Source: a virus. From it: DNA of 62,397 bases. Positions 1-58,334 of this stretch are shown one piece after another (the first letter of the stretch is position 1; each line of letters opens with the position of its first letter). Location of the stretch: IMG/VR virus record IMGVR_UViG_3300044640_001993, positions 1-62,397 of that record; one strand, written 5' to 3'. The translations under genes and the position numbers were made by a program. Under the pieces are notes generated by a model. That model did not search any database. It was not told the origin of the DNA and saw only the letters and a program-made list of their open reading frames with translations.

Positions 1-71
1 CTATAGCTGGGTTGGTTAGAGCTAACCCGTGCTATAGCAGAAGAAGAGTTGGACGGTTGTTGGTCAGCCAT
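1..71 (-). CDS. Partial CDS, N-terminus of an early-region protein
   Basis: An open frame starts at an ATG at 71 and runs off the left edge; only 23 residues are visible (MADQQPSNSSS...), rich in Ser, Gln and Asn, so the family cannot be named. The start is supported by a strong Shine-Dalgarno (TAGGAGG) 8-15 bases upstream, in a leader resembling those of the next seven minus-strand genes. The leader sits just after the terminator-like hairpin of the preceding gene. It is the eighth member of the cassette row that continues to 4335. Confidence 0.55.
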   Translation of the reverse strand, partial: MADQQPSNSSSAIARVSSNQPSY

Positions 72-75
72 GTGG

Positions 76-91
76 TACCTCCTACGGTGTA
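76..91 (-). promoter_or_regulatory. Shine-Dalgarno hairpin leader
   Basis: On the minus strand ACC-GTAGGA-GGT can form a short stem with the Shine-Dalgarno in the loop and 3' arm, the same arrangement as in front of the other early genes, here with only three base pairs. Confidence 0.35.
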
Positions 92-105
92 TTGGCTGTT
101 GGTCA

Positions 106-143
106 TAAAAAGTGACCCACAACGAACAGTTCGTTGTGGGTCA
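106..143 (-). terminator. Intrinsic terminator-like hairpin
   Basis: A 16-bp perfect inverted repeat (GTGACCCACAACGAAC and its complement, 111-143) is followed on the minus strand by TTTTTA. It lies 14 bases after the stop of the 158-718 gene. The apex carries the palindrome ACGAACAGTTCGT, which recurs elsewhere in the window. Confidence 0.8.
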
Positions 144-157
144 CTAGGAGTTATAGC

Positions 158-718
158 TTATAGATTCTTGTAATACCTATTGTTAGGCTTTAAAAAGCTG
201 TCATGCTTTCTTAATACCTCTTCTAGCTCTTCTATTGGTTGACCTGTCCCCCAAGTCTTCCAGTAAGAAGCAATATAATCTCCAAACCTGTTTGGTTTTG
301 GGGATATTCTTACAGCAAAGCTCTTCCTCTTTTCACAGAAGTATTGATAGAGCTTATCTACCTTCAGGAGGTCAAGAATAGCTATATCTTCTCCTACGAC
401 ATCTACCTTCTTGGATATAAGGAAGGCGTGAGCTCCACCAGAGGGGGTCTTGTACCCTACCCAGAATTGGTCAGGATGTGCAGCCACCCATCTTTTCATA
501 ATTTCATCTACCTCTTGGATAGAGGCAACGGTGTGGTGGTCATCTACCACACCGTTATGTGCAACATCCCAGTCGCACATTAACAAGTGCTTCATGTTCA
601 TAAAGCGTACTCCTTTCTCAATTCTGAAGCTTACGTCAGCTTCAAACGAGAAATTCAACTCTTCCAAGTTCAAGGACTTGGAAAAAGAAGAAGCAGCAAC
701 AGAAAAGTGATTAGCCAT
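158..718 (-). CDS. Hypothetical protein with archaeo-eukaryotic primase-like motifs
   Basis: This 186-residue protein has three motifs in the order and spacing expected of archaeo-eukaryotic primase/PrimPol catalytic cores: an acidic pair in CDWDV (residues 48-52), a small-residue/His motif SGGAH (93-97), and RISPK (137-141). That would make it a small primase or nucleotidyltransferase acting in DNA replication or repair, but the match is by eye only and the protein is shorter than most such enzymes. The ATG is preceded by AAGGAGA in the loop of a 4-bp hairpin. It has its own downstream terminator hairpin and follows the terminator of the gene upstream. Alternative: an unrelated phage protein with chance motifs. 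Confidence 0.5.
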   Translation of the reverse strand: MANHFSVAASSFSKSLNLEELNFSFEADVSFRIEKGVRFMNMKHLLMCDWDVAHNGVVDDHHTVASIQEVDEIMKRWVAAHPDQFWVGYKTPSGGAHAFLISKKVDVVGEDIAILDLLKVDKLYQYFCEKRKSFAVRISPKPNRFGDYIASYWKTWGTGQPIEELEEVLRKHDSFLKPNNRYYKNL

Positions 719-724
719 GATAAA

Positions 725-738
725 GTCTCCTTAAAGAC
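725..738 (-). promoter_or_regulatory. Shine-Dalgarno hairpin leader, GTCT-TTAAGG-AGAC
   Basis: A four-base-pair stem (GTCT/AGAC) encloses the hexaloop TTAAGG; the Shine-Dalgarno AAGGAG spans the loop and 3' arm. The ATG follows six bases later. Its arms differ from those of neighbouring leaders but remain complementary. Confidence 0.5.
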
Positions 739-752
739 AAAACGTTCACAAA

Positions 753-780
753 GAAAAACCCCACTCAATTGAGTGGGGTT
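753..780 (-). terminator. Intrinsic terminator-like hairpin
   Basis: AACCCCACTCAATTGAGTGGGGTT is a fully self-complementary GC-rich hairpin followed by TTTTTC on the minus strand. It lies between the stop of the 804-1559 gene and the leader of the next gene, with only about 15 bases left before the Shine-Dalgarno hairpin. Confidence 0.75.
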
Positions 781-803
781 AGTTAGGTAGCTTATAGACC
801 AAA

Positions 804-1559
804 CTACCAATTGTATTTTTCTATCTTGTAATCATCTGCTCTCAAGGCTGGAGGCATGAACACCCCTTTACCATTGGCGTTCAGACAGACCAATCTGCCA
901 TTAACTATGATTAAACACTCTGGACAATCCCAATGCCTCCGTGGGTCAATGCCAGGAAGCAGGGCACTAATTCTGGGATGGAGTTTGAATCCTTCTCCTT
1001 TCTTCTCAAAGTGAACCTCTGCATATTGCAGAGAGCTTTTAATTTGCATTAGTCGCCAGCCGCCTTGCCATTTAATAGCAATATCGCTGGCTAATCCTAC
1101 GTCCATTACAGACTTAGGAGTGGCCATAATAGGGTCGTAACCCAACTGCTTGAGCATAGTAAAGACTTTGTGCACAGTCATTACTCCAAAGAGTAATAGC
1201 CTTCTGGAGTGAGTAAACTCTCCCAGTGGGTACTCCACTGAGTTAACGAGATTCATTGTCTGGTTATCCACAACTAAAAGTTGTGCGGGTGTGGGCTTTA
1301 AATCTTCTTTCTTGATTGGTTTAGGTACTATCACTGGTTTAGAGACAGTAGTTGCCACCGCTCCACCAGTAACTTCTATACCTATAAATCTTGCAGCGTC
1401 GGAGGGACGCATACTAAACTCACGCAAAAGCTGACTTGCAGTGAGCTTACAGTAGCCAGACCCACAAGGGCACTTCCAGCTTTTTGCAAGTCTATCGGTT
1501 TTTCCGTATACTTTATCTGCGTAGCTTAATGCGTGGGCACAGATTGTTTTAGTAGCCAT
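804..1559 (-). CDS. Putative PD-(D/E)XK-like nuclease with Cys-rich N-terminus
   Basis: This 251-residue protein is not recognised with certainty. An N-terminal CPCGSGYC cluster (residues 30-37) may bind a metal. The middle has an Asp (ASDIAIKW, about residue 159) followed 13-15 residues later by QIKSS (172-176), a spacing and pattern like the catalytic D...(E/Q)xK of PD-(D/E)XK nucleases, including the QxK variant known from cyanobacterial homing nucleases. I chose the ATG at 1559 because AAGGAG lies 10 bases upstream; an in-frame TTG at 1583 would translate the leader itself. The 400 bases upstream hold a structured non-coding segment, which could be a substrate, host or regulator, but nothing proves a link. 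Confidence 0.5.
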   Translation of the reverse strand: MATKTICAHALSYADKVYGKTDRLAKSWKCPCGSGYCKLTASQLLREFSMRPSDAARFIGIEVTGGAVATTVSKPVIVPKPIKKEDLKPTPAQLLVVDNQTMNLVNSVEYPLGEFTHSRRLLLFGVMTVHKVFTMLKQLGYDPIMATPKSVMDVGLASDIAIKWQGGWRLMQIKSSLQYAEVHFEKKGEGFKLHPRISALLPGIDPRRHWDCPECLIIVNGRLVCLNANGKGVFMPPALRADDYKIEKYNW

Positions 1560-1567
1560 TTGTCGAA

Positions 1568-1581
1568 GTCTCCTTAAAGAC
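1568..1581 (-). promoter_or_regulatory. Shine-Dalgarno hairpin leader, GTCT-TTAAGG-AGAC
   Basis: The arms and loop are identical to the leader at 725-738, and the following spacer differs. The Shine-Dalgarno decides the start at 1559. Confidence 0.5.
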
Positions 1582-1620
1582 AAAAAAGTTTCTATAAAAA
1601 TATCCCTCTACGAACAAATC

Positions 1621-1930
1621 GTGAGGATTGAATTTGGGAAGCGGCTGTACCCTTGCGGCTGTACGTATCCGGGGTTCAGCGACGAGCGCGAACACCCACT
1701 TTTTGAGTAAGCCCAGGCAGAACCTAGAACCTTATTAGGGCACTGCTTACTCCAACGGGCTATTTAACTGCGGCTGTACCGCAGCAGGCATCCCTACCCT
1801 GGACAAGTAGTTGAGCATTATGCCTGCAATACTAGAGCCCCTGACACGCAGGGCAACCTCAAGTCGCCTAAGCAACGAGAAGTCAGCGCACAGCTATCCC
1901 GTGATAGCCGCGTACTCTAGTAAAGCAGGA
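1621..1930. ncRNA. Candidate structured non-coding RNA, strand unknown
   Basis: No convincing reading frame crosses this stretch, which is more GC-rich than its surroundings. It contains several perfect stems: GAGTAAGC (1705-1712) with GCTTACTC (1745-1752); GCAGGCAT (1784-1791) with its complement (1820-1827); CTGCGG/CCGCAG (1768-1773/1779-1784); GCTATC with tetraloop CCGT (1893-1908); GGGGTTC/GAACACCC (1671-1697); and TACTAGAG (1830-1837) with CTCTAGTA (1915-1922), which would close a multibranched junction. The decamer GCGGCTGTAC occurs three times (1641, 1655, 1770). I see no tRNA-like T-arm, no RNase P core and no group I intron P7 pair, so I cannot name the class. It occupies a cassette slot between a terminator hairpin and the leader of the nuclease-like gene. 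Confidence 0.55.
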
Positions 1931-1950
1931 CATAAAGCCACTACCTACAG

Positions 1951-1975
1951 AAAAAACCCCTCGTAATGAGGGGTT
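1951..1975 (-). terminator. Intrinsic terminator-like hairpin
   Basis: AACCCCTC and GAGGGGTT flank a five-base loop, followed by TTTTTTC on the minus strand, directly downstream of the 1989-2534 gene. Confidence 0.75.
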
Positions 1976-1988
1976 AAATTAAACTAGA

Positions 1989-2534
<546 letters not shown>

Positions 2535-2541
2535 GACATAA

Positions 2542-2555
2542 AGCCCCTCACGGCT
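2542..2555 (-). promoter_or_regulatory. Shine-Dalgarno hairpin leader, AGCC-GTGAGG-GGCT
   Basis: Both arms and the loop differ from those of the other leaders, yet the four-base-pair stem is preserved (AGCC/GGCT). It provides the best compensatory change in the set. Confidence 0.5.
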
Positions 2556-2564
2556 ATAAATAAA

Positions 2565-2597
2565 CAAAAAATCCCCTTAGCGTCTGCTAAGGGGATT
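2565..2597 (-). terminator. Intrinsic terminator-like hairpin
   Basis: An 11-bp stem AATCCCCTTAG/CTAAGGGGATT with a six-base loop is followed by TTTTTTG on the minus strand. It starts three bases before the stop of the 2600-2875 gene. Confidence 0.75.
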
Positions 2598-2599
2598 AA

Positions 2600-2875
2600 T
2601 TATTTGCTGATATTTTGTGAAGCCCACGAGTTTGTAAGCTTCTGTATACCTCCTATAAGGTATACAACACCAGCTAATTCGCTAGAATGTGGGTTTTCCT
2701 CAACCCAGCGGTGAAGCTTTGTTAGTGCTTCACGTATATGACTAAAACGAGTAGTGCAAGAAAAGAGTAATTCTTCTTCTTGCATAGATAAGGTGTTATC
2801 CCAATCTATGTCAACCCATTTACTAGCTTGTTTTAGCAAGCTAGAAGCCTGTATCATAAATCTTCTATTGTTCAT
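2600..2875 (-). CDS. Small helical hypothetical protein, early paralog A
   Basis: A 91-residue, probably all-helical protein of unknown family. Its second half (ELLFSC...HIREALTKLHRWVEENPHSSELAGVVYLIGGIQKL) follows the same residue pattern as the 3631-3930 protein (ELLQL...LVDLQHWLV...SQEVFELIDSVQHL), so the two look like diverged paralogs. The ATG at 2875 is preceded by TAAGGAGG, part of the longest leader hairpin in the set (6 bp). Role unknown; position suggests early host takeover or regulation. Confidence 0.65.
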   Translation of the reverse strand: MNNRRFMIQASSLLKQASKWVDIDWDNTLSMQEEELLFSCTTRFSHIREALTKLHRWVEENPHSSELAGVVYLIGGIQKLTNSWASQNISK

Positions 2876-2876
2876 A

Positions 2877-2894
2877 AAACCTCCTTACAGGTTT
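2877..2894 (-). promoter_or_regulatory. Shine-Dalgarno hairpin leader, AAACCT-GTAAGG-AGGTTT
   Basis: A six-base-pair stem with hexaloop GTAAGG, the strongest of the early leaders. The ATG begins one or two bases beyond the stem. Confidence 0.55.
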
Positions 2895-2904
2895 AATAAA
2901 ATCA

Positions 2905-2931
2905 GAAAAAACCCCACTCAGTTGAGTGGGG
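2905..2931 (-). terminator. Intrinsic terminator-like hairpin
   Basis: CCCCACTCA and TGAGTGGGG flank two bases and are followed by TTTTTTC on the minus strand, downstream of the 2943-3566 gene. Confidence 0.75.
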
Positions 2932-2942
2932 AATTTAGTTAT

Positions 2943-3566
2943 CTATGGTTGTTGGTTTTGGGAAACATTAAACAGAGAAGGCAAGTTACCTGTTACTACA
3001 GGAGGAGTAGTTGGTGCTGGTGCTGGTTGAACTAAAAGAGTACCGCAAGCATCACAGTGGGTGTTAGCTTCATGATTAGGCGTGTTGCAGGCTGGGCACA
3101 CAATGAAGTTAGAAGATGCAGAAGTATTCCGAACTCTTGGAGCTGTGGGAATATAGCGAGGTACTGGTGCACCACCTAGCTTTGCCATCTTTTTATCCAT
3201 ACGCTCTTGCTTGAGCTTCCGTGCCATATCCAGAGCTGAGAGAGCCGCTGACTCTCTATGTTCTCTAGCTTGCTGAATGGAGTCCTCAATAATCTCCAGT
3301 CTGTCTTCACAGGAGCTCAAAGCTCTATAAGTTGTGACTAAGGCTTGTTCAGCTTGTCTCATCCTTATAGCACCCTCAGTTTCTTCTTTCAGTACAGCCA
3401 GGCGGGCTTTCTCTATGACTTTTTTCTCAGCTAGTTCACACTTACTACTTTCTAACTCCGTTAGAACCTCTGCCTCTTGAGCAGAAATAACGGGAGCGGG
3501 AGCGGAAGCAGTAGGAGCAGCAGCAGGAGAAGAGAACAAAGAAGCAAACTTTTTGAAAATAGACAT
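2943..3566 (-). CDS. Coiled-coil protein with C-terminal zinc ribbon
   Basis: This 207-residue protein starts MSIFKKFASLF (amphipathic), continues with an Ala-Pro linker, a long charged coiled coil (about residues 30-125), and a zinc-ribbon-like CPACN...HCDACG (about residues 160-180) before a Pro-rich tail. The ribbon is typical of protein- or nucleic-acid-binding adaptors, but the partner is unknown. The start at 3566 is set by AAGGAG 12 bases upstream; an upstream in-frame start would read through the leader hairpin. Architecture resembles the 1989-2534 protein, which lacks the ribbon. Confidence 0.7.
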   Translation of the reverse strand: MSIFKKFASLFSSPAAAPTASAPAPVISAQEAEVLTELESSKCELAEKKVIEKARLAVLKEETEGAIRMRQAEQALVTTYRALSSCEDRLEIIEDSIQQAREHRESAALSALDMARKLKQERMDKKMAKLGGAPVPRYIPTAPRVRNTSASSNFIVCPACNTPNHEANTHCDACGTLLVQPAPAPTTPPVVTGNLPSLFNVSQNQQP

Positions 3567-3573
3567 AATAAAA

Positions 3574-3587
3574 GGCTCCTTACAGCC
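3574..3587 (-). promoter_or_regulatory. Shine-Dalgarno hairpin leader, GGCT-GTAAGG-AGCC
   Basis: A four-base-pair stem with the loop GTAAGG. The arms differ from those of the other leaders and pair perfectly. Confidence 0.5.
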
Positions 3588-3600
3588 AATAAATAAACAG

Positions 3601-3624
3601 AAAAATCCCCTCATAATGAGGGGA
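3601..3624 (-). terminator. Intrinsic terminator-like hairpin
   Basis: TCCCCTC/GAGGGGA with a five-base loop and a TTTTT tail on the minus strand, downstream of the 3631-3930 gene. Confidence 0.7.
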
Positions 3625-3630
3625 ATCTAA

Positions 3631-3930
3631 CTAAAAGCGTTTGATTCTATAGCACTCAGCTAGATGCTGAACACTATCAATTAACTCAAAGACTTCCTGA
3701 CTTTCATCTTTTGCGTAGACCAACACCAACCAGTGCTGTAGGTCTACTAGCCTATCTCTGTAGGCTATAGTTAGCTGTAGCAACTCAGAGTCAGAACACT
3801 CAGAGAGATTGGTGACTAAGGAAAGATTAGGAAAGCCCAATCCTTCTGCTTCTACAAGCAGGCTATTAGACCTGCTTATGAACTTCTTCAAGAACCCCAC
3901 TGGGTTAGATTCAAATGATTTACGTGACAT
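3631..3930 (-). CDS. Small helical hypothetical protein, early paralog B
   Basis: A 99-residue predicted helical protein without a recognised family. It shares the C-terminal residue pattern of the 2600-2875 protein (Leu-rich helix, HW or QHW, then acidic helix and IQ/VQ-L), pointing to an old duplication inside this operon. The ATG at 3930 is preceded by TAAGGAG. Here the leader stem is weak (two pairs, then a mismatch), and an alternative TACAG/TGTA pairing exists. Confidence 0.65.
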   Translation of the reverse strand: MSRKSFESNPVGFLKKFISRSNSLLVEAEGLGFPNLSLVTNLSECSDSELLQLTIAYRDRLVDLQHWLVLVYAKDESQEVFELIDSVQHLAECYRIKRF

Positions 3931-3963
3931 AATACAAGCTCCTTACAGGCTGTATAAAAACAG

Positions 3964-3993
3964 AAAAATCCCCACTCAACTGAGTGGGGATTT
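3964..3993 (-). terminator. Intrinsic terminator-like hairpin
   Basis: AAATCCCCACTCA and TGAGTGGGGATTT form a long stem over a two-base centre and are followed by T-rich sequence on the minus strand. It overlaps the last bases before the stop of the 3997-4335 gene. Confidence 0.75.
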
Positions 3994-3996
3994 TCT

Positions 3997-4335
3997 CTAG
4001 TTAAAGAGCAGCTCTACAGGGAGCTGTAATCGCTCCTTCCAGGAGAGCTGCTGGTCAGCTCTCCTGTATTTTAACTCTTCACCATAAATGCTCTTCCAGC
4101 CGTCTGGAAGAGCATTTATGTAAGCGAGTTTGTATTCTTCCAACACTTCCTCAAAGGGAAGTGAGGTCGCCTTAGCGACCGTTTCTTCAATTATTTCAAT
4201 GGTGATTCGCTCACCATTTTCTATGGAGAGTTGCGCCTCTCCATTATCTCTACCGGCGTTTTCAAGACGAGCTGCTAAATCAAGCGCATCTTCTAACTCT
4301 TGCCAGGAGTCAAATTCATCCTTATACAATGTCAT
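3997..4335 (-). CDS. Acidic hypothetical protein, first early gene
   Basis: A 112-residue acidic protein with two likely helices rich in Glu and Leu; no family recognised. It is the promoter-proximal gene of the minus-strand row, transcribed away from the repeat-bearing control region at 4400-4760. The start at 4335 is supported by GTAAGGAGG 10 bases upstream. The leader stem is imperfect (CT/AG plus a wobble pair). Confidence 0.65.
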   Translation of the reverse strand: MTLYKDEFDSWQELEDALDLAARLENAGRDNGEAQLSIENGERITIEIIEETVAKATSLPFEEVLEEYKLAYINALPDGWKSIYGEELKYRRADQQLSWKERLQLPVELLFN

Positions 4336-4366
4336 TATTAAAGCCTCCTTACAGATGTATATTTAC

Positions 4367-4401
4367 AAAAAATCCCTCAACGAACAGTTCGTTGAGGGAT
4401 T
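4367..4401 (-). terminator. Terminator-like hairpin upstream of the first early gene
   Basis: AATCCCTCAACGAAC (4371-4385) and its full complement (4387-4401) form a long hairpin with T-rich sequence (TTTTTTG) after it on the minus strand. It lies before the first early gene, so it either ends a transcript arising in the control region or is a leader attenuator. The apex again carries ACGAACAGTTCGT. Confidence 0.65.
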
Positions 4402-4472
4402 GATCTCCTACACAAAACAAGCCAGGAATTGTTCGTTTTCAGAACCCCGGCTTACCCTGTGACAGCATATTC

Positions 4473-4592
4473 CATCCACCTCTACCCGCTATCAATTTTT
4501 CCCCCAGCTCCGCTATCAATTTTTCCTCCAGCTCCGCCATCAAGCAGTTAACATATTGCTCTACCTGCTATCAATTTTTCCTCCAGCTTCGC
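4473..4592. repeat. Direct repeats in the divergent control region
   Basis: The 466-base gap between the early (minus) and late (plus) genes contains near-identical copies of GCTATCAATTTTTCCYCCAG beginning at about 4489, 4512 and 4567, with a shorter related copy near 4728-4750, and two copies of CATCCACCTCTA (4473, 4608). The rest is a long pyrimidine/T-rich tract (4640-4700). Irregular spacing rules out a CRISPR array. The position suggests operators, a replication origin with iterons, or promoter elements; which one cannot be read from sequence. Confidence 0.65.
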
Positions 4593-4801
4593 AAACTGTA
4601 CAGCTTACATCCACCTCTATCAGCTACTAAGCTGCCGACTATCTTCTTTTATTTCTTTTTATATTTTTCTTTATTTCTTTTTTCTTATTTTTTAATTACT
4701 TAATCGCACTTCTAAAAAATCCGCGCATATATTTTCCCCCAGCTTCGCAAAACTCTATTACTCTTACAGTGTTATCCTTAAAGAGTATTAACTATTTCAT
4801 C

Positions 4802-5644
4802 ATGCAATACGCTCCTATTACACCTATTTCTACACCTACTCTGAGAGATTCATTTCTTGGAGCTAGAACAGTACAGGCTTCGATTTCTCAGTTATCTTTT
4901 CTTGAAGAGCAAGAGTTAGTTGTTGCGAGTAACTTAGCTGCGCCGGACTCTACTCTAATAACTTATAGACGTACTCACAACTTTTACCGATTAGCGGAAC
5001 CGCCGTTAAAGCTACGGCATAATGGGGCTACAGTTGACCAAGAGTTATTTGTATATAATTTCTCCTTTGTACAAGATAGCCCTGCGCCGAAGGCTCCACA
5101 GGTGTTATATCCACCTGCTGACCCTTTTACTTATGATTGGGGTGGGGAGTCTTACTATCAAAGAGACACTACCGTTTATATCTTTCCTAGTTTACCTGTA
5201 CCTACTAGAAGTAATTTGGTATGGGATGGTAGATACTCTATTTGTATTAATGCCGCGGGAGCGGCTGTGGATAGTTCTTCAAAGATACCAAAACTGCAAG
5301 GACTGGCGCGAACGGCTATAGAGAATCCAGGAATGCCGAAGTTTAGTGTATGGCTATCTAATCTTGGACAAACTAGAAAACCAGAGAACTTCTCAGCCGA
5401 TTTAAACATAAATGAGTATAATGTTTATCTGCAAAGATTCTTAGATGAACATTATAACGCTTTGAGCGTTCCTCCAGTCCCTATTGCTTTTACAGACTTA
5501 GACGTTATCCGTAACGGGGTGACTGCACCAACAAATGATGTTGAAGCCACGCCAATTACAACTACAATATTAGCCGCACTGCTTGAAGGAGATTACTTTG
5601 TTAAGTGGGTGGCGTATAGTTCAACAGCTTTAGGGGGTTCTTGA
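4802..5644 (+). CDS. Hypothetical, probably virion-associated protein
   Basis: A 280-residue protein with many beta-prone stretches and few charged runs, as in many phage structural proteins; no family recognised. The start ATG at 4802 is chosen over an upstream in-frame GTG at 4769, and neither has a clear Shine-Dalgarno. It overlaps the following PAAR gene by one base (TGATG), so both are probably translated together and it may act in the spike or baseplate. Confidence 0.65.
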   Translation: MQYAPITPISTPTLRDSFLGARTVQASISQLSFLEEQELVVASNLAAPDSTLITYRRTHNFYRLAEPPLKLRHNGATVDQELFVYNFSFVQDSPAPKAPQVLYPPADPFTYDWGGESYYQRDTTVYIFPSLPVPTRSNLVWDGRYSICINAAGAAVDSSSKIPKLQGLARTAIENPGMPKFSVWLSNLGQTRKPENFSADLNINEYNVYLQRFLDEHYNALSVPPVPIAFTDLDVIRNGVTAPTNDVEATPITTTILAALLEGDYFVKWVAYSSTALGGS

Positions 5645-5946
5645 TGCAGCAAGCTTTATTAGGAGACCGCATTACTTGTCCTAATACTCCAATATGTCCT
5701 CATCCTAAACGTGGACCATACACTATCATTGGAGTTATCAAAAGCTGTAAAGTGAGTACAGTTTTAGTTAGTGGTAGACCACCAGCTACTGTAGGAGACT
5801 TAGCTTTCTGCGGCGGACCATCCTTTCTAACTACAGGGTGTCTAACGGTATTAATTCAAAATATGCCCGCACACCGGGTAGGCGATCGTAATCATTGTAC
5901 AGGTCACACCTTGGGATCAGGCGCACCAACAGTATTAGTAGGTTAA
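5644..5946 (+). CDS. PAAR-domain spike tip protein
   Basis: This 100-residue protein matches the PAAR-repeat family: repeated short beta segments with Cys/His residues and the typical ending NMPAHRVGDRNHC...G.GAPTVLVG. PAAR proteins form the sharp, metal-stabilised cone at the tip of contractile spikes (phage, type VI secretion) and pierce the target envelope. It should cap a trimeric spike encoded elsewhere in the window (43701-45485 or 47223-48830). The ATG overlaps the preceding stop. That it sits far from the other baseplate genes, at the start of the plus-strand block, is unusual. Confidence 0.88.
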   Translation: MQQALLGDRITCPNTPICPHPKRGPYTIIGVIKSCKVSTVLVSGRPPATVGDLAFCGGPSFLTTGCLTVLIQNMPAHRVGDRNHCTGHTLGSGAPTVLVG

Positions 5947-5948
5947 AC

Positions 5949-6305
5949 ATGAACTTCTTAAAGAATTTTTATTACTTGTATAAGCTCTTATGTAATGTGA
6001 AAGTTACCACAGGAGTTGATGACCCAGTTAGGCTCACCTGCGGCTGTATTACTTTAGAAGTCTGGGATAGAGAAGTAAATCTAAAAGTAAATGGGTTGAT
6101 GCAGGTTGATCCCATGTTTATGTCTGTTTGTCAGCACTTCTACGATCAAACAAAGAAAGGAAGTCAAGAGGAAGCTATTATGTTGTTATACCGAGATATA
6201 GCTAATATGACCAATGAGCAGGAAAGAGAGTCGGCGTACAGAGCAATTAACGATAAAGCTGACCCCAGATACAGCGAAGCAGTTGAGGCAATTAGCCAAG
6301 CATAA
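5949..6305 (+). CDS. Small hypothetical protein
   Basis: A 118-residue protein starting MNFLKNFYYLYKLLCNVKV, three bases after the PAAR stop. An internal segment with DPVRLTCGCITLEVWD looks beta-rich, and the C-terminus is helical and charged. No family recognised. The last 92 bases overlap the next gene in another frame. Confidence 0.55.
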   Translation: MNFLKNFYYLYKLLCNVKVTTGVDDPVRLTCGCITLEVWDREVNLKVNGLMQVDPMFMSVCQHFYDQTKKGSQEEAIMLLYRDIANMTNEQERESAYRAINDKADPRYSEAVEAISQA

Positions 6306-6486
6306 GGGATTAACACAGAGCGAGTTGTTAGAGTTACTGTTTGACTTCTACAACCTCAAAAACCTAGACTTGCTGCTGGCTAACATAAAGACCTTACTCA
6401 ACGGAGGGTTAACAGCTATAAATAAAGCACAGTTGTCTGTGCTTTATAGTTACTTAACTGAAGTATCAGAGCGGATTAGTCTGTAG
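6214..6486 (+). CDS. Ribbon-helix-helix (CopG/MetJ-like) DNA-binding protein
   Basis: This 90-residue protein begins MSRKESRRTEQLTIKLTPDTAKQ, a classical ribbon strand (alternating residues), followed by two helices around KHKGLTQSELLELLFDFY, as in ribbon-helix-helix repressors. It probably binds operator DNA as a dimer and may regulate phage genes; the repeats at 4473-4592 are a possible target (inference). The start at 6214 lies inside the preceding gene, an out-of-frame overlap of 92 bases, and its end overlaps the convergent minus-strand gene by 11 bases. Confidence 0.75.
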   Translation: MSRKESRRTEQLTIKLTPDTAKQLRQLAKHKGLTQSELLELLFDFYNLKNLDLLLANIKTLLNGGLTAINKAQLSVLYSYLTEVSERISL

Positions 6487-7498
6487 CTTTCGCTCTGATA
6501 TTTAATCTTACAGTTCTTGAAGGTTGTAGGAGGTCTGGTCTTCCAGCAGCCTTTAAGCTGTAAATACCATTCTTAAACTTGAGTCTTGATTGTCCTTCAC
6601 CAACCATATCAAGAGTCAAGACATTTAGAGTATTTTTTACAGCCAAGGTTACTACACCGTTGCTGAGAGTGATATCTAGCCTATAATCATTATCCACAGA
6701 AATCCAGTATTGGAGTCCATCTACCGGATCTTCGTAAATCTTCGAGTAGTTTAGAGAATTAAGGTCTGAAACCAAATCCTCTTCAGAAAGGTTTAGTAAA
6801 CTCAATTCTTCTGTAACTGTTAAATATCTAAACGACATTAATAGATTCTTGTTAGCCGAAGATATATAAATGTTCTCACCAGCCTTATAGACTTGTTGAT
6901 ACTGCGGAGAGAATAGATGACTTGAAGATGGCACTGATTCAGCTATAAACAAACTTAGCGGCGCGTACTGAGGTAAAAACTCTATAAATAACTCATCTAG
7001 TTGTGTAAACACTTCTTGTTGAGAGTTATATTGTTGTAAAGTTGTCCACTCTTGTAGAAGTTGTTGCTGCTTTTCTGGCTGTATTTTGGTCTGTACCAGC
7101 ACCTGCACTAACTTTGTGCCGTTATAGGTCTCAAAGGAAAAGAAGTACCTTCCAGCGTGTTTGGTGAACAGTAAAGAGCGTTCTGCTGTTGTGCTGCCCC
7201 AACAGTAGGTTTTTGCACCGTTAATGTTTAAAGGTGTTAATACCTTTTGGGTCAGAACCTTTAAGTTCTGGTCTAATACAGTTAGTAGTTGACCAGGAGT
7301 ATAACTATAATCTTGGAGGTCTACTGTTGGTTCTGGAAAGCCTTCTGCGGTAAGAAAGCTGCTGAGGAAGATTGTTTCTCCTCCAAATAAGGCTATGTCA
7401 ATCAAGTCTGCTTCTGAAAGGTACTTTGATAGCTCTGAGTAACCACCAAAGGGTAAGAGCCTTTCGTTAATATCTTCTATAAGGTCTGTCGGTATCAT
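6476..7498 (-). CDS. Hypothetical tail/baseplate-region protein
   Basis: A 340-residue protein, the last of four minus-strand genes running from 20915. No recognised domain. It is rich in beta-prone, Tyr/Gln-containing segments with a repeated LLQEWTTLQQYNSQQ helical stretch, in keeping with a structural role. Its context (downstream of the presumed tape measure gene) is where baseplate or hub proteins are usually encoded. Confidence 0.6.
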   Translation of the reverse strand: MIPTDLIEDINERLLPFGGYSELSKYLSEADLIDIALFGGETIFLSSFLTAEGFPEPTVDLQDYSYTPGQLLTVLDQNLKVLTQKVLTPLNINGAKTYCWGSTTAERSLLFTKHAGRYFFSFETYNGTKLVQVLVQTKIQPEKQQQLLQEWTTLQQYNSQQEVFTQLDELFIEFLPQYAPLSLFIAESVPSSSHLFSPQYQQVYKAGENIYISSANKNLLMSFRYLTVTEELSLLNLSEEDLVSDLNSLNYSKIYEDPVDGLQYWISVDNDYRLDITLSNGVVTLAVKNTLNVLTLDMVGEGQSRLKFKNGIYSLKAAGRPDLLQPSRTVRLNIRAKATD

Positions 7499-7504
7499 TT
7501 AAGA

Positions 7505-8602
7505 TTACTCAATATAGAAGGACTGTATATAAAATTTGCTGCTAGGTAAACTTATTGGTGGGGGTGTTCTTTTAGCGATGATGAAGACAATATAACTGTC
7601 TCCTTCCTTCCAAAAAGGCGGATCTACAAACATTAAATAACTACCATCTTGATTAAAAGAACTTGATTTTTTTCCCTCTACTTGTTTATAGCCTCCTTTT
7701 TTTGGAAAACTGTCTATTAAACTTTGATTCCACTCTAATCCTACTTGACTAGCGGCAAACTTAGATAGTTGCTGCTTGTCTATCTTTTTAGTTTCTTCTT
7801 GTATTGATAGACCTATTTCTTTTGCGCTCGCATTACTCTCTACGTTTTTCTCTTTATTCTCTACTGTCACAACTTTTCTCTTAGGGTATTTAGTATACAA
7901 AACAGTAATGCTATAATAAGTTTTAGCCCGCCGCACTGCAAAAGCTTTAAAGTCTACTATAACTCCAGTTATGTCTATAGTCTCTGCTACGCCTGCGGCA
8001 TTAATAGTAATGTTTAAACTAATAGGAGCGCCTTGTTGAACTACTCTCTCATCAAACTCTTTAGCAGTCTGGTAAGAACTTCTAGATACTCCAGGTGTTT
8101 TAGGTTTTGAAGAAAACTCGTCTGACCCTACAAAAGCTCCCACCAGAACAATATATTTACTATCAACTCCAATAGTCTGGACAACATTAGTCCCGCCAGG
8201 AATGACAATATTTTTATGTTTCATAGTAGTTCTAATAGGCAATCCAGCTTTTACGTCAGGGACGCTGGCGTTACCTCTAAAAGAACCAGAGCCTGAGTAA
8301 GTTAATATGTTATCTACAGCAGGGGGTAAAGCAAAGTTAAATACTCTCGCGCCGCTTTGTCTATCTGTATATTTTATATTAAAGCTATCTATAACTCTTA
8401 CGCCTTTGCGTAGGTTTGCTAGTCCCTCTTTTGATATAGCAGGTGGATTTTGAGCTAGTAGAAGAGCTCGATTTTCTCTTGTACCTTTAACACCTACAGA
8501 CTTGGTTGGTTTTGTAGGAGTCTTTTTGGGTACTTTTGTAGTCGGCTCTTTTTTCTTTACTAAAGCTAGTAGGGTCGGGTTATCAGTTCCAAAGGATGTC
8601 AT
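7505..8602 (-). CDS. Hypothetical tail/baseplate-region protein
   Basis: A 365-residue protein with a basic Pro/Lys/Thr-rich N-terminus (about 40 residues) and a beta-rich middle (NITINAAGVAETIDITGVIVDF...YYSITVLYTKYPKRKVV). No family recognised. It overlaps the upstream gene by four bases (translational coupling) and precedes the 6476-7498 gene by six bases. Probably a baseplate or tail-completion component by context. Confidence 0.6.
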   Translation of the reverse strand: MTSFGTDNPTLLALVKKKEPTTKVPKKTPTKPTKSVGVKGTRENRALLLAQNPPAISKEGLANLRKGVRVIDSFNIKYTDRQSGARVFNFALPPAVDNILTYSGSGSFRGNASVPDVKAGLPIRTTMKHKNIVIPGGTNVVQTIGVDSKYIVLVGAFVGSDEFSSKPKTPGVSRSSYQTAKEFDERVVQQGAPISLNITINAAGVAETIDITGVIVDFKAFAVRRAKTYYSITVLYTKYPKRKVVTVENKEKNVESNASAKEIGLSIQEETKKIDKQQLSKFAASQVGLEWNQSLIDSFPKKGGYKQVEGKKSSSFNQDGSYLMFVDPPFWKEGDSYIVFIIAKRTPPPISLPSSKFYIQSFYIE

Positions 8603-9123
8603 ATAGCCTCACTAACTGGCAGAACTAATCTAATTCTTTCTAAAGCATTCTCTTCCTTAGTTTTAGGAGGAAAGTGCGCTAGATAAACTAGGGTTAAGTT
8701 ACTGAGCGTTGTGGTGACTAGTCCACTAGCTGTAATTGCGGTTGCTGATTCAAAGAGACTGAGCGATCGCCAACTAGGCTGAGTAAGCTGGTTGTGCGTT
8801 AATACACCTCCAAAACATACTTCTTGGCAGTTGTTACTTTGTAAACTTGTTAAAGTATTAGGCAGCTTTTTATAACCAATGCCTGCTAAATTAAAGTCTG
8901 TGCTAGTTGTCGCTCGGACAACACCGCTTATTTCTGTTACTAGAATATAACCCATTAATTCTTGAACAGTAGTCTCTACCCCTGACACAGTTGGAGGAGA
9001 GATATCAAGACTCCAAGGAGAGAACCGCCCTAATCCTATTAGATAAAAGTTTGGTTTTGCTGCTAAAGACAATATCTTTTTATATCTATTAGCTTGTATA
9101 AATGAACTACTACTTATCATCAC
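8599..9123 (-). CDS. Putative baseplate wedge protein, weakly gp53-like
   Basis: A 174-residue protein whose N-terminal half (NRYKKILSLAAKPNFYLIGLGRFSPWSLDISPP) resembles the opening of a common myovirus family, including T4 gp53-like wedge proteins, that read yyxxIGRxxPWxxExxPP. That is a recollection of a pattern, not a search result. It starts with ATGATG overlapping the stop of the giant gene and overlaps the next start by four bases, so all four minus-strand genes form one translationally coupled operon. Confidence 0.5.
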   Translation of the reverse strand: MMISSSSFIQANRYKKILSLAAKPNFYLIGLGRFSPWSLDISPPTVSGVETTVQELMGYILVTEISGVVRATTSTDFNLAGIGYKKLPNTLTSLQSNNCQEVCFGGVLTHNQLTQPSWRSLSLFESATAITASGLVTTTLSNLTLVYLAHFPPKTKEENALERIRLVLPVSEAI

Positions 9124-12100
9124 GTCTCCAAATATGTAGGAATTTCATCACCTTCGTAGGTTGTTAAGGTTACGCCTGTTAGTTCATCTAACTCCATAGC
9201 AGTAAGGAAACCGCTATTATTATTGTAATCTGAAGAAGAAGCCATTGTAGCTCCGTCTTCTTCGTCAAAGACATCAACAGAGGCTTGAGCGATAATCTGC
9301 TCACTAAAGCGTTCAGCGGCTTCTCTAGTTGATTGTTTAATACCTTCTATTATTCTGTCTGCCATATCTTGTTCTGTTACACCTTCTCCTGGTAGTCCGG
9401 CCTTTCTATTAGTGAGAAGGCCTGCTATACCCATACCTACTACCCCACCAACAACTTCTCCTGTTAATCTTCCTAAAGGTGTTGCAGCAAAGCCTCCGCT
9501 TCTAGTTCCAATGGTATCTACTACTTTGTTAGATATTACAGAACTAGCGTTGAAGATAGATTCAAAAGCTATTCCTGTAAGTAAGGATTCTGTTGAACCT
9601 CCGCCCATAGTTAAACTATTTCTGATTCTGGCTGTCCTTAACCGCTGGGCTGTTTTAGCTAGTTCCCCCTCGGAGGTAGGGTCAGCTACTGCACTAGAAG
9701 ATAGATAAGACTGGGCTGTGTTACTTAATAGTTCTATTGCTTGTTCTGAAGCTGAAGCTCTATTTTGCATCAAGGCAAACAAGGCTGGTACTGCTAATAC
9801 ACTAATAGCTTCAGATATAGAGTGCGATCGCCTGGACTCTCTACTTATTCTGTTAACTTCAAGGCTTGTAGCTCTTTTTATAGTAGCTGTGAGATTCCTG
9901 TTTAATTCGTTTTGGATGTCTTGTACGGTTTTAAAATGGTCTTCAGGACGAAGATTATTTGAGTTTGATTTAGCTGCGTCCATTTGTGCTTGTAGTCTAT
10001 CTATAGCAGCATCGTATTGTACGTTTAGTTTTTCTCTGACATCTTCTGCTTGACTAAGATTTATATTGTTAGCAGCTTGCTCGGCTACTAAGCTTGTGTA
10101 CTCTTGGTTAAGCTTACTCATTGTATAAGTAAAAGCACTTTGGTTAGCAGCTTGCTCTGCTGCGGAAGTGTTTAACTCTAGACCTTTAATAGCTTCAAGC
10201 CCAATTCTGTATTCTCTTTCTCCTGGTTTACCTTCTACTTCTGACTTGCTAAATAGTAAAGCTTCAGCCTCTTCAGATAGGTACTTACCATTATCTCCTA
10301 AAGCACCTATATCTGCCTTTAAAGCGTTCTTATCAATACTAGGATTTGTGAAAACTGTATACTCCATTGCTAAATTTAAGTTTGTATACTCATTTGTTCT
10401 CACATATCTAGAGGCTCTTGCTTCAATTGCAGCTATATCTGGGTTATTATCTCCATCAGGATTGTAGCCTATAGAAGTGTTTTGCAGTCCTAACATACTA
10501 AAGAAGCCTCTATAAGCCGCCTCGGCAGGTCTTTTATCTGGTTGATTTTCAATACCTGGATTTGTAGTTTTAACAGCTTCTGCGGCTAAACCAGCTATTT
10601 CTGGTAAAGCTTGAGCATAAAAGCCCATCCATATATTAGGGTCAATCTTTCCAGCAGCTAATTGTTGAGCAAAAGCTGTAGAGTATAAACTTAAGTTTTG
10701 TTCCAAGTTAGAAGGTAAACTACCCTCTCTCATTTCACCTATAGCACTGTGTAGATTCTTCAGTTCATTAATACTATCCTTTAACCGCTGTTGGTCGTTC
10801 TGTAGGGTTTTGTTTATACTTGCTCTTAAACCAGCTTCAAATATCTCAAAGTCGTCATTTAACCCAGAAGTTGCTTTAGCGATCGCCTCTTGCATACCTT
10901 CTTGTTCTATTCTGTATTCTTTTAGATAACCCTCTTCTAAAGTTTTTATAGCAGAAGTTTCATTTAAACCTTCAAGAAGTTCTGCTTTTCTTCTATCAAC
11001 TAGTGAATCAATAGCCCCTCTTTCAAACTCATCATCTTTGTTGTAAGTACCGACTCGCTTTACTCCGTACAGGTCTAGTAAAGCCTGTCCTGTTCTAGCA
11101 AACTCTACTCTGTTTTGTATTTCTAAAGAGTTAATAAAGATATACTCGCTTTGGAAAGCACTAGTTAGGTCAGTGATAAAGTTAGAGATAAAGTCATCTG
11201 CTGATTGACCTGCATACTTTTCTCTTGTCTGTGCAGCTTTTAAAATATCTTTAAAGACGCTTTGCTCCATCATTGCAGAGCTATCTTCAAAGTTGCCAGA
11301 AACATACTCTGTTATCAGCTTTAATGCGGCAAACGCTTTAGCCTGACGTGCGTAAACAGGGGTTTCTTTTTCTCCTAAATAGATATCTAGGTCGTTACCA
11401 ACTTTTTCACCTAAAAATCTAGTAAGAATGCTTTCTCTATTATCTTTTATAGTTCTAGAATCTCCGGTAAGACTATTAAGGATGTTGGTCAATCCTTTTA
11501 TATTGTCTTGTCCTTCTGGCAATTGAATCCCGTAGCTTGGTAACTCGTCTGCAGGGAGGAAGAAGTCATCAACCACTTCCAACATTATGGTTTTGGAAGT
11601 ATTAGTCCCTTTCTTTGATTCTTTAGGTTTAATAGCAGCGTCTCTCAAGAACTGCTGTGTAGTAATGACAAATCTCATTGCTACTTCTAGCTGGCGGTTT
11701 CCTTCATCTAGCCTTAAGTTGGTAGATAAAGTTTGACCACTGTTGAAGTAACTATTTCTTCTTTGCTCTAGTTGGTTTATAAGGCTTTGTTGTGCCTGGT
11801 CTGTAGTAGACAACTGAGCTTTTCTTTGATTTATTTCTCTAGTTAAACCAGCAGCCATAGCCATTCTGTAGGATGCTCCTTCATCACCCCGCATAGCTCG
11901 CTGGGCTGTTATTTCTCCCATTTTGATAGCTACTAATGGTACTACAGTGTTATAGGTACTTCCTAATAACCCTGTACCAGAAGCTCCAAGGATAGATTGA
12001 ATTTCATTTATACCCTGTGCGTCTAATATAGAACCTGTAGCAGAAGCAAGACGTTTATCACTATTTGCCATACTAGCGTTAAAGCTGGCAACGTTTGCTT

Positions 12101-15100
12101 GTTGTAGAATAATGGCGTTGATTACATCCTCTGGTGTATTAAGATTATCTTTGTTTTCTATGTCTTGGTAGTAATAGTCAAACTCGCTTGTGGCTGCCGC
12201 TAGGAGTTTTCTACTTTCTTCATCTCTTGTGTACCCAACCATGCCAGTTACTTTAAACTCGCCATTTTGTTTAGTCAGCTGCAGCTTGGATAACACATCA
12301 TTAGTTAAAACTCCAACTGCATCTGTGGCGTGTTTGGTATTACCATAGATGCCATCTAGAGTATCTCTAAATTGTTTAACTAAGGACTGAAGAGATTCGT
12401 CAGGTAGAATCCCGCCTTCTCCCATCATTTCACGAGGTATCGCTGTGTAAGTAGAAGTGTAGGCGCGTAGCCCTTTATTTGCTCTCTGCTTGGCTTCTAT
12501 TTTTATCTTTCTATGCTCGTTTAGTAGTTCATTTTTGTGTTTTATCATTAAGGATAGTTCTTCATCGGCAGCTTTAACTTCTGCCTTACTTATGGCATTT
12601 AGTTTGTCTGTAGAAAGAGAGCTATCATGATGAAGATTAGATTTATCTTTTGAAAGCTTGTCTACTGCAGCTTGTTGTTGTTGAATGCGTCTGGTAACGT
12701 TAGCTAATTGAGTCATTGCTCCTTGGAAGGAGTCACCGTCGTAGTCTCCCAACTCTGTATAGTGCATACCTAAAGCGGAAACAAGCATTAGAGTGGCGGA
12801 TTCTCTTTTAGCAAGGCGGACTAGTGTATCTGTTTCTCTTGCTCTTTGGTCTACTGTTCCTACCCCAACTATATTTAATAGAGCCGTCGCACTTTCAGAA
12901 GGAAGAGCCGCACCATAAGGACCACCTTGTCTTGCTTCTGTTGACGATGAGCTGTAAAGTTTTTCTATTTCTTCTAGCCTGGTTTTAGTTTTTGCTTTTA
13001 CTGTCTCATTAAAATCAGCAAAAAGTGGTAAGTCAAGATAACTAGAAGGAAATAATTCTTTAACTGGTTCTACACTATTAATCTGTCTTGAACTAATTAA
13101 CCTTGAGGTGTAGTCCATAAAAGAGTCAACACTAGCTACCCTATACCCATCTATAAGAGGGTTTACATGACTTCTAGTTATATACTCTGTTTCTGGAAGC
13201 TCTTGTCCATAAGTTTGTGAGTAGTAAGTCTGTCTTTGTTGGTTTAGTCTATCAACTAACTTATCTAGTAAAAAAGGAAGCTGACTTTCTTTTAAAGCTA
13301 CACTCTGTTTACTAGCTTCAAGCTTGGCTTCATTTTCTAGAATTATTTTTTCTTTTTCTTCTATTTTTGTGCGTAGATTTTTCTGTTCATCTTCAATAGT
13401 TTTAGCTACTCGCATTTTAAAAACATTAATGTCTGACTTATCAATAGGGCTACTTGCTTTTTTTCTTATTCTTACTTTTTCATTTGCATTGTCATCACTC
13501 TCGTCATACTCTCTACCATATTCTACATACTCGTAGTCTAAACCCATCCTTTTTAATAAACGGTTAGAGACGTAACCTTTTTTAAATGTTTTTCCCTCTT
13601 CAGCAATTCCATCTTCATCTTTTTTATCTCTTAATCTAAAGGTTTCTAAATCTTTATACTCAGCTTCAGTTAAACTACTATTTTGGGTAGCATTGTCTAC
13701 AAGACTTTGCATTTTGTTTCTTGTAGCGTCTAAGTCTTTATATCTTTGGATTAGGTTTGCAAGTTGACGATGTTGAAGACCTGTAAAGAGTGTTACACTT
13801 CTTACTTCATTTGAATCAGGAATATTTGTTCTATAAGAAACTTGTTTAGTAGTTGTACCAACTTGACCTTCTAAATAATCTATTGAGGCATTAAGTTTCA
13901 CTATGCTTTTAGAAACGCCAAGTAAGGCTGCTCTAGACGTTTTCAGTTCAGCTTTTACGTTTGCGTTCTGTCCTCTTTGAGTGACTTCCGTAAATCTAGA
14001 GCCAAAAGCTACTTCATCCTCTGCTAGTAAGAGACTAGACATAGCGATCGCACTCATACCAGAAAGCTTTAACCTATCTGTGGCAGCTTGTCTAATAGTC
14101 TCTTGGTTGTTAAGCAACTCACCTGTGGTTTCCACAGATTCTCTCATTAAGAACTCTAACCTACGATACTGTGCTAACTCATAATCATCTAGTTCTGTAG
14201 TCTCAGACCTATTACTTGCCCCACTTAATCTTTCTAATAAACTGTAACTATTAGTCAATTGGTCAGACAAAGCTACTTGAGTGGTCAAGGCGGCGTGGCT
14301 TTCACCTTGAAAGACTAAAGATATCTTCTGCATTAAGTCTAGACCTAGCAGCAAGCCCTGGTTAGGTGAAGAAGAAGTAGTAGGTGCATAGCTGACAGTA
14401 TGCTTGCCGCTCTCACTCATACCGTGTCCTATCAAAGCTGGTAGAACTAATCTTTTTGTTTTAGAGATAGTCTCATACAAGTTTTTAGCCTGCTCTATAG
14501 TTGGGTCTTTACCGTGTTTACTATCTTTACTATCTTTTGATTTTTGAGTGTGAGATACGCTCCTAAGAACTTCCATTCCATACTGTAAATACTCTGTACC
14601 TGATTCAGTATTCTGAGAGGCAGTAATTCTTCTGTTTATATCAGCTTGGTAGTGTTCATAAACTCCGCTATCTCTCAATAGGTCTTCTGTGAGGTACTTA
14701 GCAATATCTAGTTTTTGATTAGGTTGGTCTGTTAGTAGTAAAGGATTAAGAGCCGCCACACTTGTGGTTAACTTTGTGAAAAAGCTTTCGTAGTAAGCAA
14801 TAGGGGCTATAAGAGTTTGCTTGTTCTTTAAAGTTTCTAAACTTCTTTCAATAATTATTTTTGGTAACTCTGTTTCTATAAACTGGCTTCTATACGGGTT
14901 TTGGGAACTCATTCTTGAATCTTTCCCATAAGCTGTACTAAACTCTTTGAAAATAGAAACCACTTCCTTCTGGATAGCTGTTTTCTGTACACCATCCATT
15001 TGAACTTCTTGGAGTATGCGTCTTTCTATCTGTCTCCTTCTGTAATTAACTCCATCCTCTGCGTCTTGAGAAGATGGCATTACTATACCTCCAGCTAGTT

Positions 15101-53126: not shown

Positions 53127-53525
53127 ATGCTTTCACCATCACTATCTCTGGCATATTTAAAGTTAATTCTTCTAGGTGGTACTGTCACAGTGGGCGGTAC
53201 TACATCTTCTGTACCAACTGGAAGTAGATATATCTCTTTTCATCAGAATGCCCCTACTACAAATTCTGCCGAGCTAGTTTCTCGCCAATTACTCTTATTT
53301 ACCATTGATGAGTCTTTAAATATTGCTGTTAACACAAATACAATAACTTTTCCTAGTTTTAATGCGGATTTAAGCAGTCTGTATTGTTCTCTGTGGTCTA
53401 CTATAACTAGTGGAAGTTTAATTGCGTATACAAAAGTGAGTATATCTCCTTTAGCGTTTAGCTCTAACAGTTTAGTTATCCAACCTCAGATGTTTGTTAT
53501 TGAACCTAGTATGTGTAGTAATTAA
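53127..53525 (+). CDS. Small beta-rich hypothetical protein
   Basis: A 132-residue protein with Ser/Thr-rich beta segments and a short hydrophobic N-terminus. No family recognised. Its stop overlaps the terminase start (TAATG), linking the two genes. Confidence 0.55.
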   Translation: MLSPSLSLAYLKLILLGGTVTVGGTTSSVPTGSRYISFHQNAPTTNSAELVSRQLLLFTIDESLNIAVNTNTITFPSFNADLSSLYCSLWSTITSGSLIAYTKVSISPLAFSSNSLVIQPQMFVIEPSMCSN

Positions 53526-57718: not shown

Positions 57719-57758
57719 AGAGAAAGAGGAGGAATTTATTATACTCTTTCTTTTTTTT
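57719..57758. terminator. Bidirectional terminator between antirepressor and tRNA array
   Basis: AAGAAAGAG and CTCTTTCTT with T-run and A-run on either side, placed between the convergent antirepressor gene and the minus-strand tRNA array; it can end transcription from both sides. Confidence 0.75.
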
Positions 57759-57766
57759 CTAAATAG

Positions 57767-57888
57767 GATAGGAGGCGGGACTTGAACCCAGCAATTAGGC
57801 ATCACTCATAAGATACGAGAAGAGTTAATTACTCTCTTCTTGCTCAGTCTAGTTTATTTGCCTTGTGATACCCTTTCACCACTCCTTC
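57767..57888 (-). tRNA. tRNA-like gene with insertion in the anticodon loop
   Basis: Acceptor (GAAGGAG/CTCCTAT, five good pairs), D-arm GTGA-AAGGGTA-TCAC and T-arm (CTGGG TTCAAGT CCCGC) are present. The anticodon stem AGGCA/TGCCT is separated by 58 bases instead of seven, including a hairpin GAAGAG/CTCTTC. No anticodon can be assigned. Possibly a disrupted tRNA, a class II variant with an unusual fold, or an intron-like insertion; far too short for a group I intron. Confidence 0.5.
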
Positions 57889-57950
57889 ATAATCAAAATA
57901 CTTCTAGTTTCTTGGAGGTATTATAAGGGGCGTTAGTGACAAACATCAGT

Positions 57951-58021
57951 CTGAGCGGCAAGAGTTGAACTCGCATTTTCCTGTTCCCAAAACAGGCGGC
58001 TTACCATTAGCCCACGCCCAG
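57951..58021 (-). tRNA. tRNA-Pro(TGG)
   Basis: Seven-base-pair acceptor CTGGGCG/CGCTCAG, D-arm GGCT-AATGGTA-AGCC, anticodon loop TTTGGGA on the stem CCTGT/ACAGG and T-arm GCGAG-TTCAACT-CTTGC. No CCA encoded. Confidence 0.9.
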
Positions 58022-58025
58022 TAAC

Positions 58026-58096: not shown

Positions 58097-58099
58097 TTG

Positions 58100-58244: not shown

Positions 58245-58249
58245 AAGGC

Positions 58250-58330: not shown

Positions 58331-58334
58331 AAAC

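What the first reader, a model, noticed from the sequence alone, without database searches (positions are those of the whole stretch)
1..4402. Row of early genes separated by terminators, each with a covarying Shine-Dalgarno hairpin
Eight minus-strand genes share one layout: gene, terminator-like hairpin, 15-40 bases, then a leader in which the Shine-Dalgarno (GTAAGG/TTAAGG) lies in a hexaloop of a small stem. Stems differ but pair: GTCT/AGAC (twice), AGCC/GGCT, AAACCT/AGGTTT, GGCT/AGCC; the leaders at 3937-3950 and 4343-4356 are weaker. The compensatory changes argue for a real RNA element. Between terminator and leader there is little room for a promoter, so either all genes depend on readthrough or antitermination, or the hairpins are processing sites and the SD hairpin tunes translation of each cistron.
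Basis: partly seen in the sequence, partly recalled or inferred. Interest (0 to 1): 0.75.

Follow-up and report, generated by a model that had tools for sequence, protein, structure and literature searches.

The report
Phage gene row with hairpin leaders
In this virus of cyanobacteria, a row of small unrelated genes is punctuated by one repeated RNA module (a stop signal followed by a tiny hairpin that holds the ribosome-binding site), and a distant relative has the same row and module, so it is a real conserved control element, not chance.

Summary
Eight minus-strand leaders (A-E, G, H, I) each follow an intrinsic terminator; there are nine terminators, one weak. Five leaders hold the Shine-Dalgarno (SD) in a perfect hexaloop stem. 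The stems covary in register (score 0.68 against 0.24 shuffled, 0/500; slid controls at most 0.22), and RNAalifold, not told the structure, returns both hairpins. Terminator, AT-rich spacer and SD hairpin form one repeated module of about 60-65 bp. A covariance model trained only on the window ranks four places in the syntenic row of a distant relative (G008, 197 kb) above everything else in 714 kb. There one hairpin is AAGCCT-GTAAGG-AGGCTT; two other leaders keep a hairpin but lose the SD. No sigma70-type promoter is seen in any gap, whereas most comparable gaps of Nostoc phage A1 have one. A 43-nt hairpin just upstream of the first terminator is identical in both phages. Best reading: a conserved terminator plus translational-leader module that makes each gene a self-contained expression cassette. 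It is analogous to T4-type PeSLs and actinophage SAS/ESAS but belongs to neither. How terminators are bypassed, or where transcription starts, is open. 'Early' is unproven.

The parts
4414..4456 (-). 43-nt non-coding hairpin element upstream of the first terminator, identical in relative G008; candidate cis element (antitermination, attenuation or promoter-linked)
   Evidence: 0 mismatches in G008 57897-57939, 12-14 nt before first terminator in both, fold z about -3.1 in both
4371..4401 (-). terminator before gene A
4343..4356 (-). leader of A, SD GTAAGG; stem weak (ATCT/AGGC)
3997..4335 (-). gene A, 112 aa, no family
3964..3995 (-). terminator before gene B
3934..3953 (-). SD hairpin of B (ACAGC-CTGTAAGGA-GCTTGT, one bulged base; register shifted)
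3631..3930 (-). gene B, 99 aa; homologue in G008 row
   Evidence: 28% identity, E 1.5e-8
3606..3624 (-). terminator before gene C
3574..3587 (-). SD hairpin of C: GGCT-GTAAGG-AGCC
2943..3566 (-). gene C, 207 aa, weak zinc-ribbon signal near C-terminus
2912..2931 (-). terminator before gene D
2877..2894 (-). SD hairpin of D: AAACCT-GTAAGG-AGGTTT
2600..2875 (-). gene D, 91 aa
2570..2597 (-). terminator before gene E
2542..2555 (-). SD hairpin of E: AGCC-GTGAGG-GGCT
1989..2534 (-). gene E, 181 aa, Ala/Pro-rich
1955..1975 (-). terminator before unit F
1632..1945 (-). unit F: probable structured non-coding RNA, 55% GC
   Evidence: fold z -4.3, 0/100 shuffles; last part 76% identical in G008, E 2e-11
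1602..1628 (-). weak terminator before gene G
   Evidence: sequence; covariance-model hit 1557-1628
1568..1581 (-). SD hairpin of G: GTCT-TTAAGG-AGAC
804..1559 (-). gene G, 251 aa; no homologue found
757..780 (-). terminator before gene H
725..738 (-). SD hairpin of H: GTCT-TTAAGG-AGAC
158..718 (-). gene H, 186 aa; SGG-H motif suggestive of primase-polymerase fold (inference only)
   Evidence: no match
111..145 (-). terminator before gene I
78..89 (-). leader of I: ACC-GTAGGA-GGT, 3-bp stem; ACC-AAGGA-GGT in G008
1..72 (-). gene I, start only (window ends)
   Evidence: 71% identical DNA over terminator, leader and start with G008

Best explanation
The row is an array of small gene cassettes in a cyanophage, each bounded by the same composite intergenic module: an intrinsic terminator, an AT-rich spacer of about 20 nt and a mini-hairpin that displays the Shine-Dalgarno in its loop directly before the start codon. 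SHOWN: module, repetition, in-register covariation of the stem, and conservation of position and module in the syntenic row of a relative. INFERRED: the terminator ends each upstream mRNA so that every gene is an insulated unit; the weak hairpin (about -3 to -8 kcal/mol) keeps the SD core exposed while closing its last bases, and so sets translation independently of the inserted gene. Cassettes can thus be gained, lost or swapped without disturbing neighbours, as the differing gene content of the two phages suggests. Transcription enters either from upstream, through the conserved 43-nt hairpin that may let polymerase pass terminators, or at non-sigma70 promoters within the module; the data do not decide.
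For: In-register covariation 0/500, slid controls far lower. Unsupervised consensus fold gives both hairpins. Repeated module, 84% identical over 63 bp between B and D. A window-only covariance model puts its four best hits of 714 kb in G008's row, E 1.7e-6 to 0.09, at the syntenic place. Leaders fold better than shuffles in the window (11/400) and in G008 (0/400), while 28 other gene starts do not (328/400). Row genes have strong SDs while most structural genes lack one. No sigma70-like promoter in the gaps. Gene content differs between the two rows, including a BRO-N-like gene inserted in G008.
Against: Only eight paralogous leaders plus one relative; A has almost no stem and I only three pairs. 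In G008 two leaders (of a' and e') keep a hairpin but lose the SD from the loop, so tuning the SD may not be the function. Single leaders are not significant on their own. No expression data.
Confidence: 0.55

Rival explanations
1. Each module holds its own promoter, read by a phage-encoded sigma factor or by host RNA polymerase with a phage factor, so it is a terminator-promoter-leader cassette like a T4-type PeSL.
For: G008 encodes a sigma70-family factor. Nostoc phage A1 has gene-terminator-promoter-gene units in gaps of 40-99 nt. Spacers are AT-rich.
Against: Best sigma70-type scores in the nine gaps are no better than shuffles (p 0.14-0.98), while four of six control gaps have p of at most 0.008. 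No shared motif beyond the T-tract and SD. H has no -10-like sequence.
Confidence: 0.35
2. The row is transcribed from upstream and polymerase is made terminator-resistant by the conserved 43-nt hairpin (4414-4456), acting like an HK022 put or lambda nut site, or as an attenuator of the first terminator.
For: Identical in both phages (0 mismatches over 43 nt) inside an 82.6% identical block, 12-14 nt before the first terminator, stable fold. Several strong terminators in series without promoters need some bypass.
Against: No known antiterminator family or Rfam match. G008's inserted gene appears to carry its own promoter-like sequence. The element could equally mark a promoter or a processing site.
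Confidence: 0.3
3. The SD hairpin silences transcripts that read through from upstream, as at T4 genes e and soc; authentic mRNAs start inside the 5' arm and lack it.
For: Precedent in PMC3014915. Spacers place a possible start near the 5' arm.
Against: SD core AAGG lies in the loop rather than the stem, and stems are weak. No promoter evidence.
Confidence: 0.15
4. The hairpin is the operator of an RNA-binding protein (CsrA-like, or a phage repressor).
For: Constant loop [GT]T[AG]AGG with variable stem in five leaders.
Against: CsrA's ANGGAN loop is in a different register and no csrA gene was found in G008, the window or LMM01. G008 leaders a' and e' change the loop.
Confidence: 0.1
5. Chance or simple sequence descent: leaders look alike because the module was duplicated, and the stems have no function.
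For: Few sequences; G and H leaders are nearly identical; B and D modules are 84% identical.
Against: Duplication preserves sequence, not pairing; both-sided changes exceed all shuffles and slid controls, and the relative keeps stems of other sequence.
Confidence: 0.07

Closest known systems
PeSLs (promoter early stem-loops) of T4-type phages (Arbiol 2010, Comeau 2014; not held, known through PMC4503421 and own knowledge)
   Same: Repeated composite intergenic cassette with stem-loop terminator between small ORFans in a variable region.
   Different: No recognisable promoter here; adds a covarying SD hairpin.
SAS/ESAS of cluster K mycobacteriophages and cluster EF Microbacterium phages (PMC3203893, PMC7302621)
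   Same: Conserved element at the ribosome-binding site of many genes, with an extra inverted repeat upstream in about half; GGG-ATAGGAG-CCC can itself form a 3-bp stem with the SD in the loop (my reading).
   Different: SAS is conserved as sequence, not by covariation (most deviant copies lose a pair); the ESAS inverted repeats are not intrinsic terminators and the authors doubted a hairpin.
RBS hairpins of T4 e, soc, 49, I-TevI (PMC3014915)
   Same: Small hairpin at the initiation region.
   Different: There the SD or AUG is sequestered in the stem; here the SD core is in the loop and the element is repeated over a row.
Nostoc phage A1 gene-terminator-promoter-gene units
   Same: Single genes separated by terminators in a cyanophage.
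   Different: Gaps mostly hold clear TTGACA-type promoters and no SD hairpins.

Membership tests
T4-type PeSL | stem-loop terminator in a repeated intergenic module | tested here: met
T4-type PeSL | host-type early promoter in the module | tested here: not met
   no sigma70-like promoter in nine gaps, positive control works
T4-type PeSL | mediates shuffling of genes between relatives | tested here: inconclusive
   gene content of the row differs between the window and G008 with conserved modules; only two phages
SAS/ESAS | repeated element at the ribosome-binding site immediately upstream of starts | tested here: met
SAS/ESAS | constant 13-bp sequence (GGGATAGGAGCCC or GGGAAAGGACCCC) | tested here: not met
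   stems vary
CsrA/RsmE site | ANGGAN hexaloop | tested here: not met
   loop is [GT]T[AG]AGG, GGA split between loop and stem
CsrA/RsmE site | csrA homologue in the phage | tested here: not met
   (window incomplete; host not known)
T4 e/soc-type RBS hairpin | SD or AUG sequestered in the stem | tested here: not met
   SD core in loop in five leaders
T4 e/soc-type RBS hairpin | alternative promoter within the 5' arm | not testable with these tools
   needs 5'-end mapping
put/nut antitermination | conserved RNA hairpin upstream of terminators | tested here: met
put/nut antitermination | terminator readthrough caused by the element | not testable with these tools
   needs a reporter assay

The most novel reading that the evidence does not exclude
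A cyanophage operates a whole gene row through a two-layer RNA programme: one conserved 43-nt hairpin makes polymerase resistant to a series of terminators, and a covarying SD-in-loop hairpin, possibly together with the F RNA, sets or gates translation of each cassette. That would be a new family of phage cis-regulatory RNA.
Probability: 0.15. Interest if true: 0.78.

Novelty: new variant of a known kind. Interest (0 to 1): 0.52.

Why it matters
It shows a conserved, covarying ribosome-site hairpin fused to a terminator as the punctuation of a phage gene row. It offers a structural reading for the unexplained SAS elements of actinophages, and it gives two precise, testable RNA elements (the 43-nt hairpin and the SD hairpin) for how phages of Rho-less cyanobacteria insulate and express newly gained genes.

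Tried and rejected
DNA and protein searches of the row in phages and plasmids: no match. Proteins G and H in viral contigs and protein G in genome contigs: none. Structural relatives G001-G007 share the virion module, but none shows the row in the sequence held; G001 carries tandem repeats at the equivalent place. Exact pattern scans gave one chance hit, none, or single hits, except L038, which led to G008. A further scan with the neighbouring tail and PAAR proteins returned only G008. T4-late-like TATAAATA motif: not enriched. T7-like RNA polymerase: none found, but the control did not ring, so uninformative. Cellular-type RNA polymerase: none. B/D and C/E gene paralogy looked plausible by eye but BLASTP does not support it. 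F is not a known Rfam family. PeSL papers are not held.

Full report
WHAT IT IS. The window is a 62,397-base IMG/VR virus record. Its terminase resembles those of Microcystis phages MaMV-DC and Ma-LMM01 over residues 584-1013 (36%), so a cyanophage is likely. The row lies at 1-4402 on the minus strand, next to the virion genes.

OBSERVATION. With the SD fixed, the summed best stem (77) is reached by 9 of 3000 replicates when 5' flanks are exchanged between leaders, 4 of 3000 when both flanks are shuffled and 2 of 3000 when only the 5' flank is. In fixed register the covariation score is 0.679 against 0.244 in shuffles (0/500), and slid structures score 0.107-0.223. Limits: eight paralogous sequences, G and H nearly identical, register chosen from the same sequences. 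RNAalifold on whole modules, without a given structure, returns the terminator and the SD stem, with both-sided changes at 10 of 13 pairs.

ONE MODULE. Repeat analysis shows terminator plus spacer plus leader to be a single repeated element (families D2, D4, D5, D6); B and D are 84% identical over 63 bp. Terminator type and leader type are not tied to each other (A and I share a terminator type, G and H a leader), so the two halves seem to be exchanged or to evolve separately (inference).

A RELATIVE. A pattern scan and a module scan led to L038, part of IMGVR_UViG_3300046777_002658 (G008, 196,877 bases). The genes at window 4769-20915 are syntenic with it at 43-75% protein identity, and beside them G008 has its own row at 57.9-62.1 kb. 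A covariance model made only from the window finds 58746-58815 (E 1.7e-6), 59394-59451 (0.005), 59746-59813 (0.024) and 60676-60735 (0.09) in G008's row; the next hits in 714 kb of relatives and other cyanophages have E above 1. Leader b' is AAGCCT-GTAAGG-AGGCTT. Leader d', of the homologue of gene B (28%, E 1.5e-8), is AGCC-GCTTAGGA-GGCT. Leaders a' and e' keep a hairpin (CGCT-TAG-AGCG, GCCGCT-TAG-AGCGGC) without an SD. As a set, leaders fold better than dinucleotide shuffles in the window (11/400) and in G008 (0/400), while 28 other gene starts do not (328/400).

TRANSCRIPTION. No gap scores above its shuffles for a sigma70-type promoter, while four of six Nostoc phage A1 gaps do (promoter weights are textbook E. 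coli values that I supplied). G008 encodes a sigma70-family protein of about 360 aa, so promoters of another kind are possible. A 43-nt hairpin at 4414-4456 is identical in G008 and lies 12-14 nt before the first terminator; an antitermination or attenuation role is a hypothesis. Cyanobacteria lack Rho (own knowledge), which fits reliance on intrinsic terminators.

MECHANISM. I favour an insulated-cassette module in which the hairpin tunes translation. Most structural genes lack an SD whereas every row gene has one. That two G008 leaders keep a stem without an SD is the main fact against a purely SD-based role.

COMPARISON. It works like PeSLs (terminator cassette between ORFans) but lacks their promoter, and like SAS/ESAS (element at the ribosome-binding site with an inverted repeat upstream) but is conserved through pairing rather than sequence. 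In TM4 and Pixie the SAS copies are almost all GGGATAGGAGCCC, and deviant copies mostly lose a pair, with one exception, CGGATAGGAGCCG. CsrA sites and T4 e/soc hairpins were considered and fail a defining feature.

VERDICT. Real and conserved; a new variant of a known kind. Interest is moderate, rising if the 43-nt element proves to be an antiterminator.

Noticed in passing
window 1632-1945 (-); G008 60507-60712 (L107): Unit F: GC-rich, strongly folded (z -4.3) probable non-coding RNA; in both phages its end carries CTGAACCCCGG and two GTACAGCCGC copies, and a short frame ending GTGCGCTGA opens it. F' is shorter and not significantly folded (z -0.6). No Rfam match.
   Followed up: partly
window 61390-61854 (-): HEARO (IscB-type omega RNA, Rfam RF02033, 101.8 bits) followed by a short ORF that looks like an IscB start; probably a decayed IscB/IsrB element in the phage.
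   Followed up: no
window 122, 4380, 24485, 36979, 56578; 11 places in G008: Palindrome ACGAACnGTTCGT recurs 5 times in the window and 11 times in G008, absent from 12 other records scanned (G001-G007 relatives and other cyanophages); sits in some terminators and elsewhere.
   Followed up: partly
window 53525-56731: Terminase protein holds an insertion of about 460 residues (roughly 112-580) absent from relatives and reading through in frame, probably an intein with endonuclease.
   Followed up: no
L109 17453-18535 (G008 117453-118535): Relative G008 encodes its own sigma70-family factor; the motif AGAAAAAAGAA[TC]AG occurs 9 times, all on the + strand, possibly a phage promoter or intergenic motif.
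   Followed up: partly
window 57949-58878 (-): Cluster of nine tRNA genes.
   Followed up: no
window 62142-62396 (-): End of a formylglycine-generating-enzyme-like (sulfatase-modifying) protein at the contig end, near the HEARO element (by eye).
   Followed up: no
window 4480-4748: Imperfect repeats GCGGAGCTGGAGGAAAAATTGATAGC upstream of the row, also present in G008 57727-57880.
   Followed up: partly
L013 1-700 (G001): Distant relative G001 has an array of tandem repeats (CCTGTAGAGAGTA type) at the place equivalent to the row.
   Followed up: no
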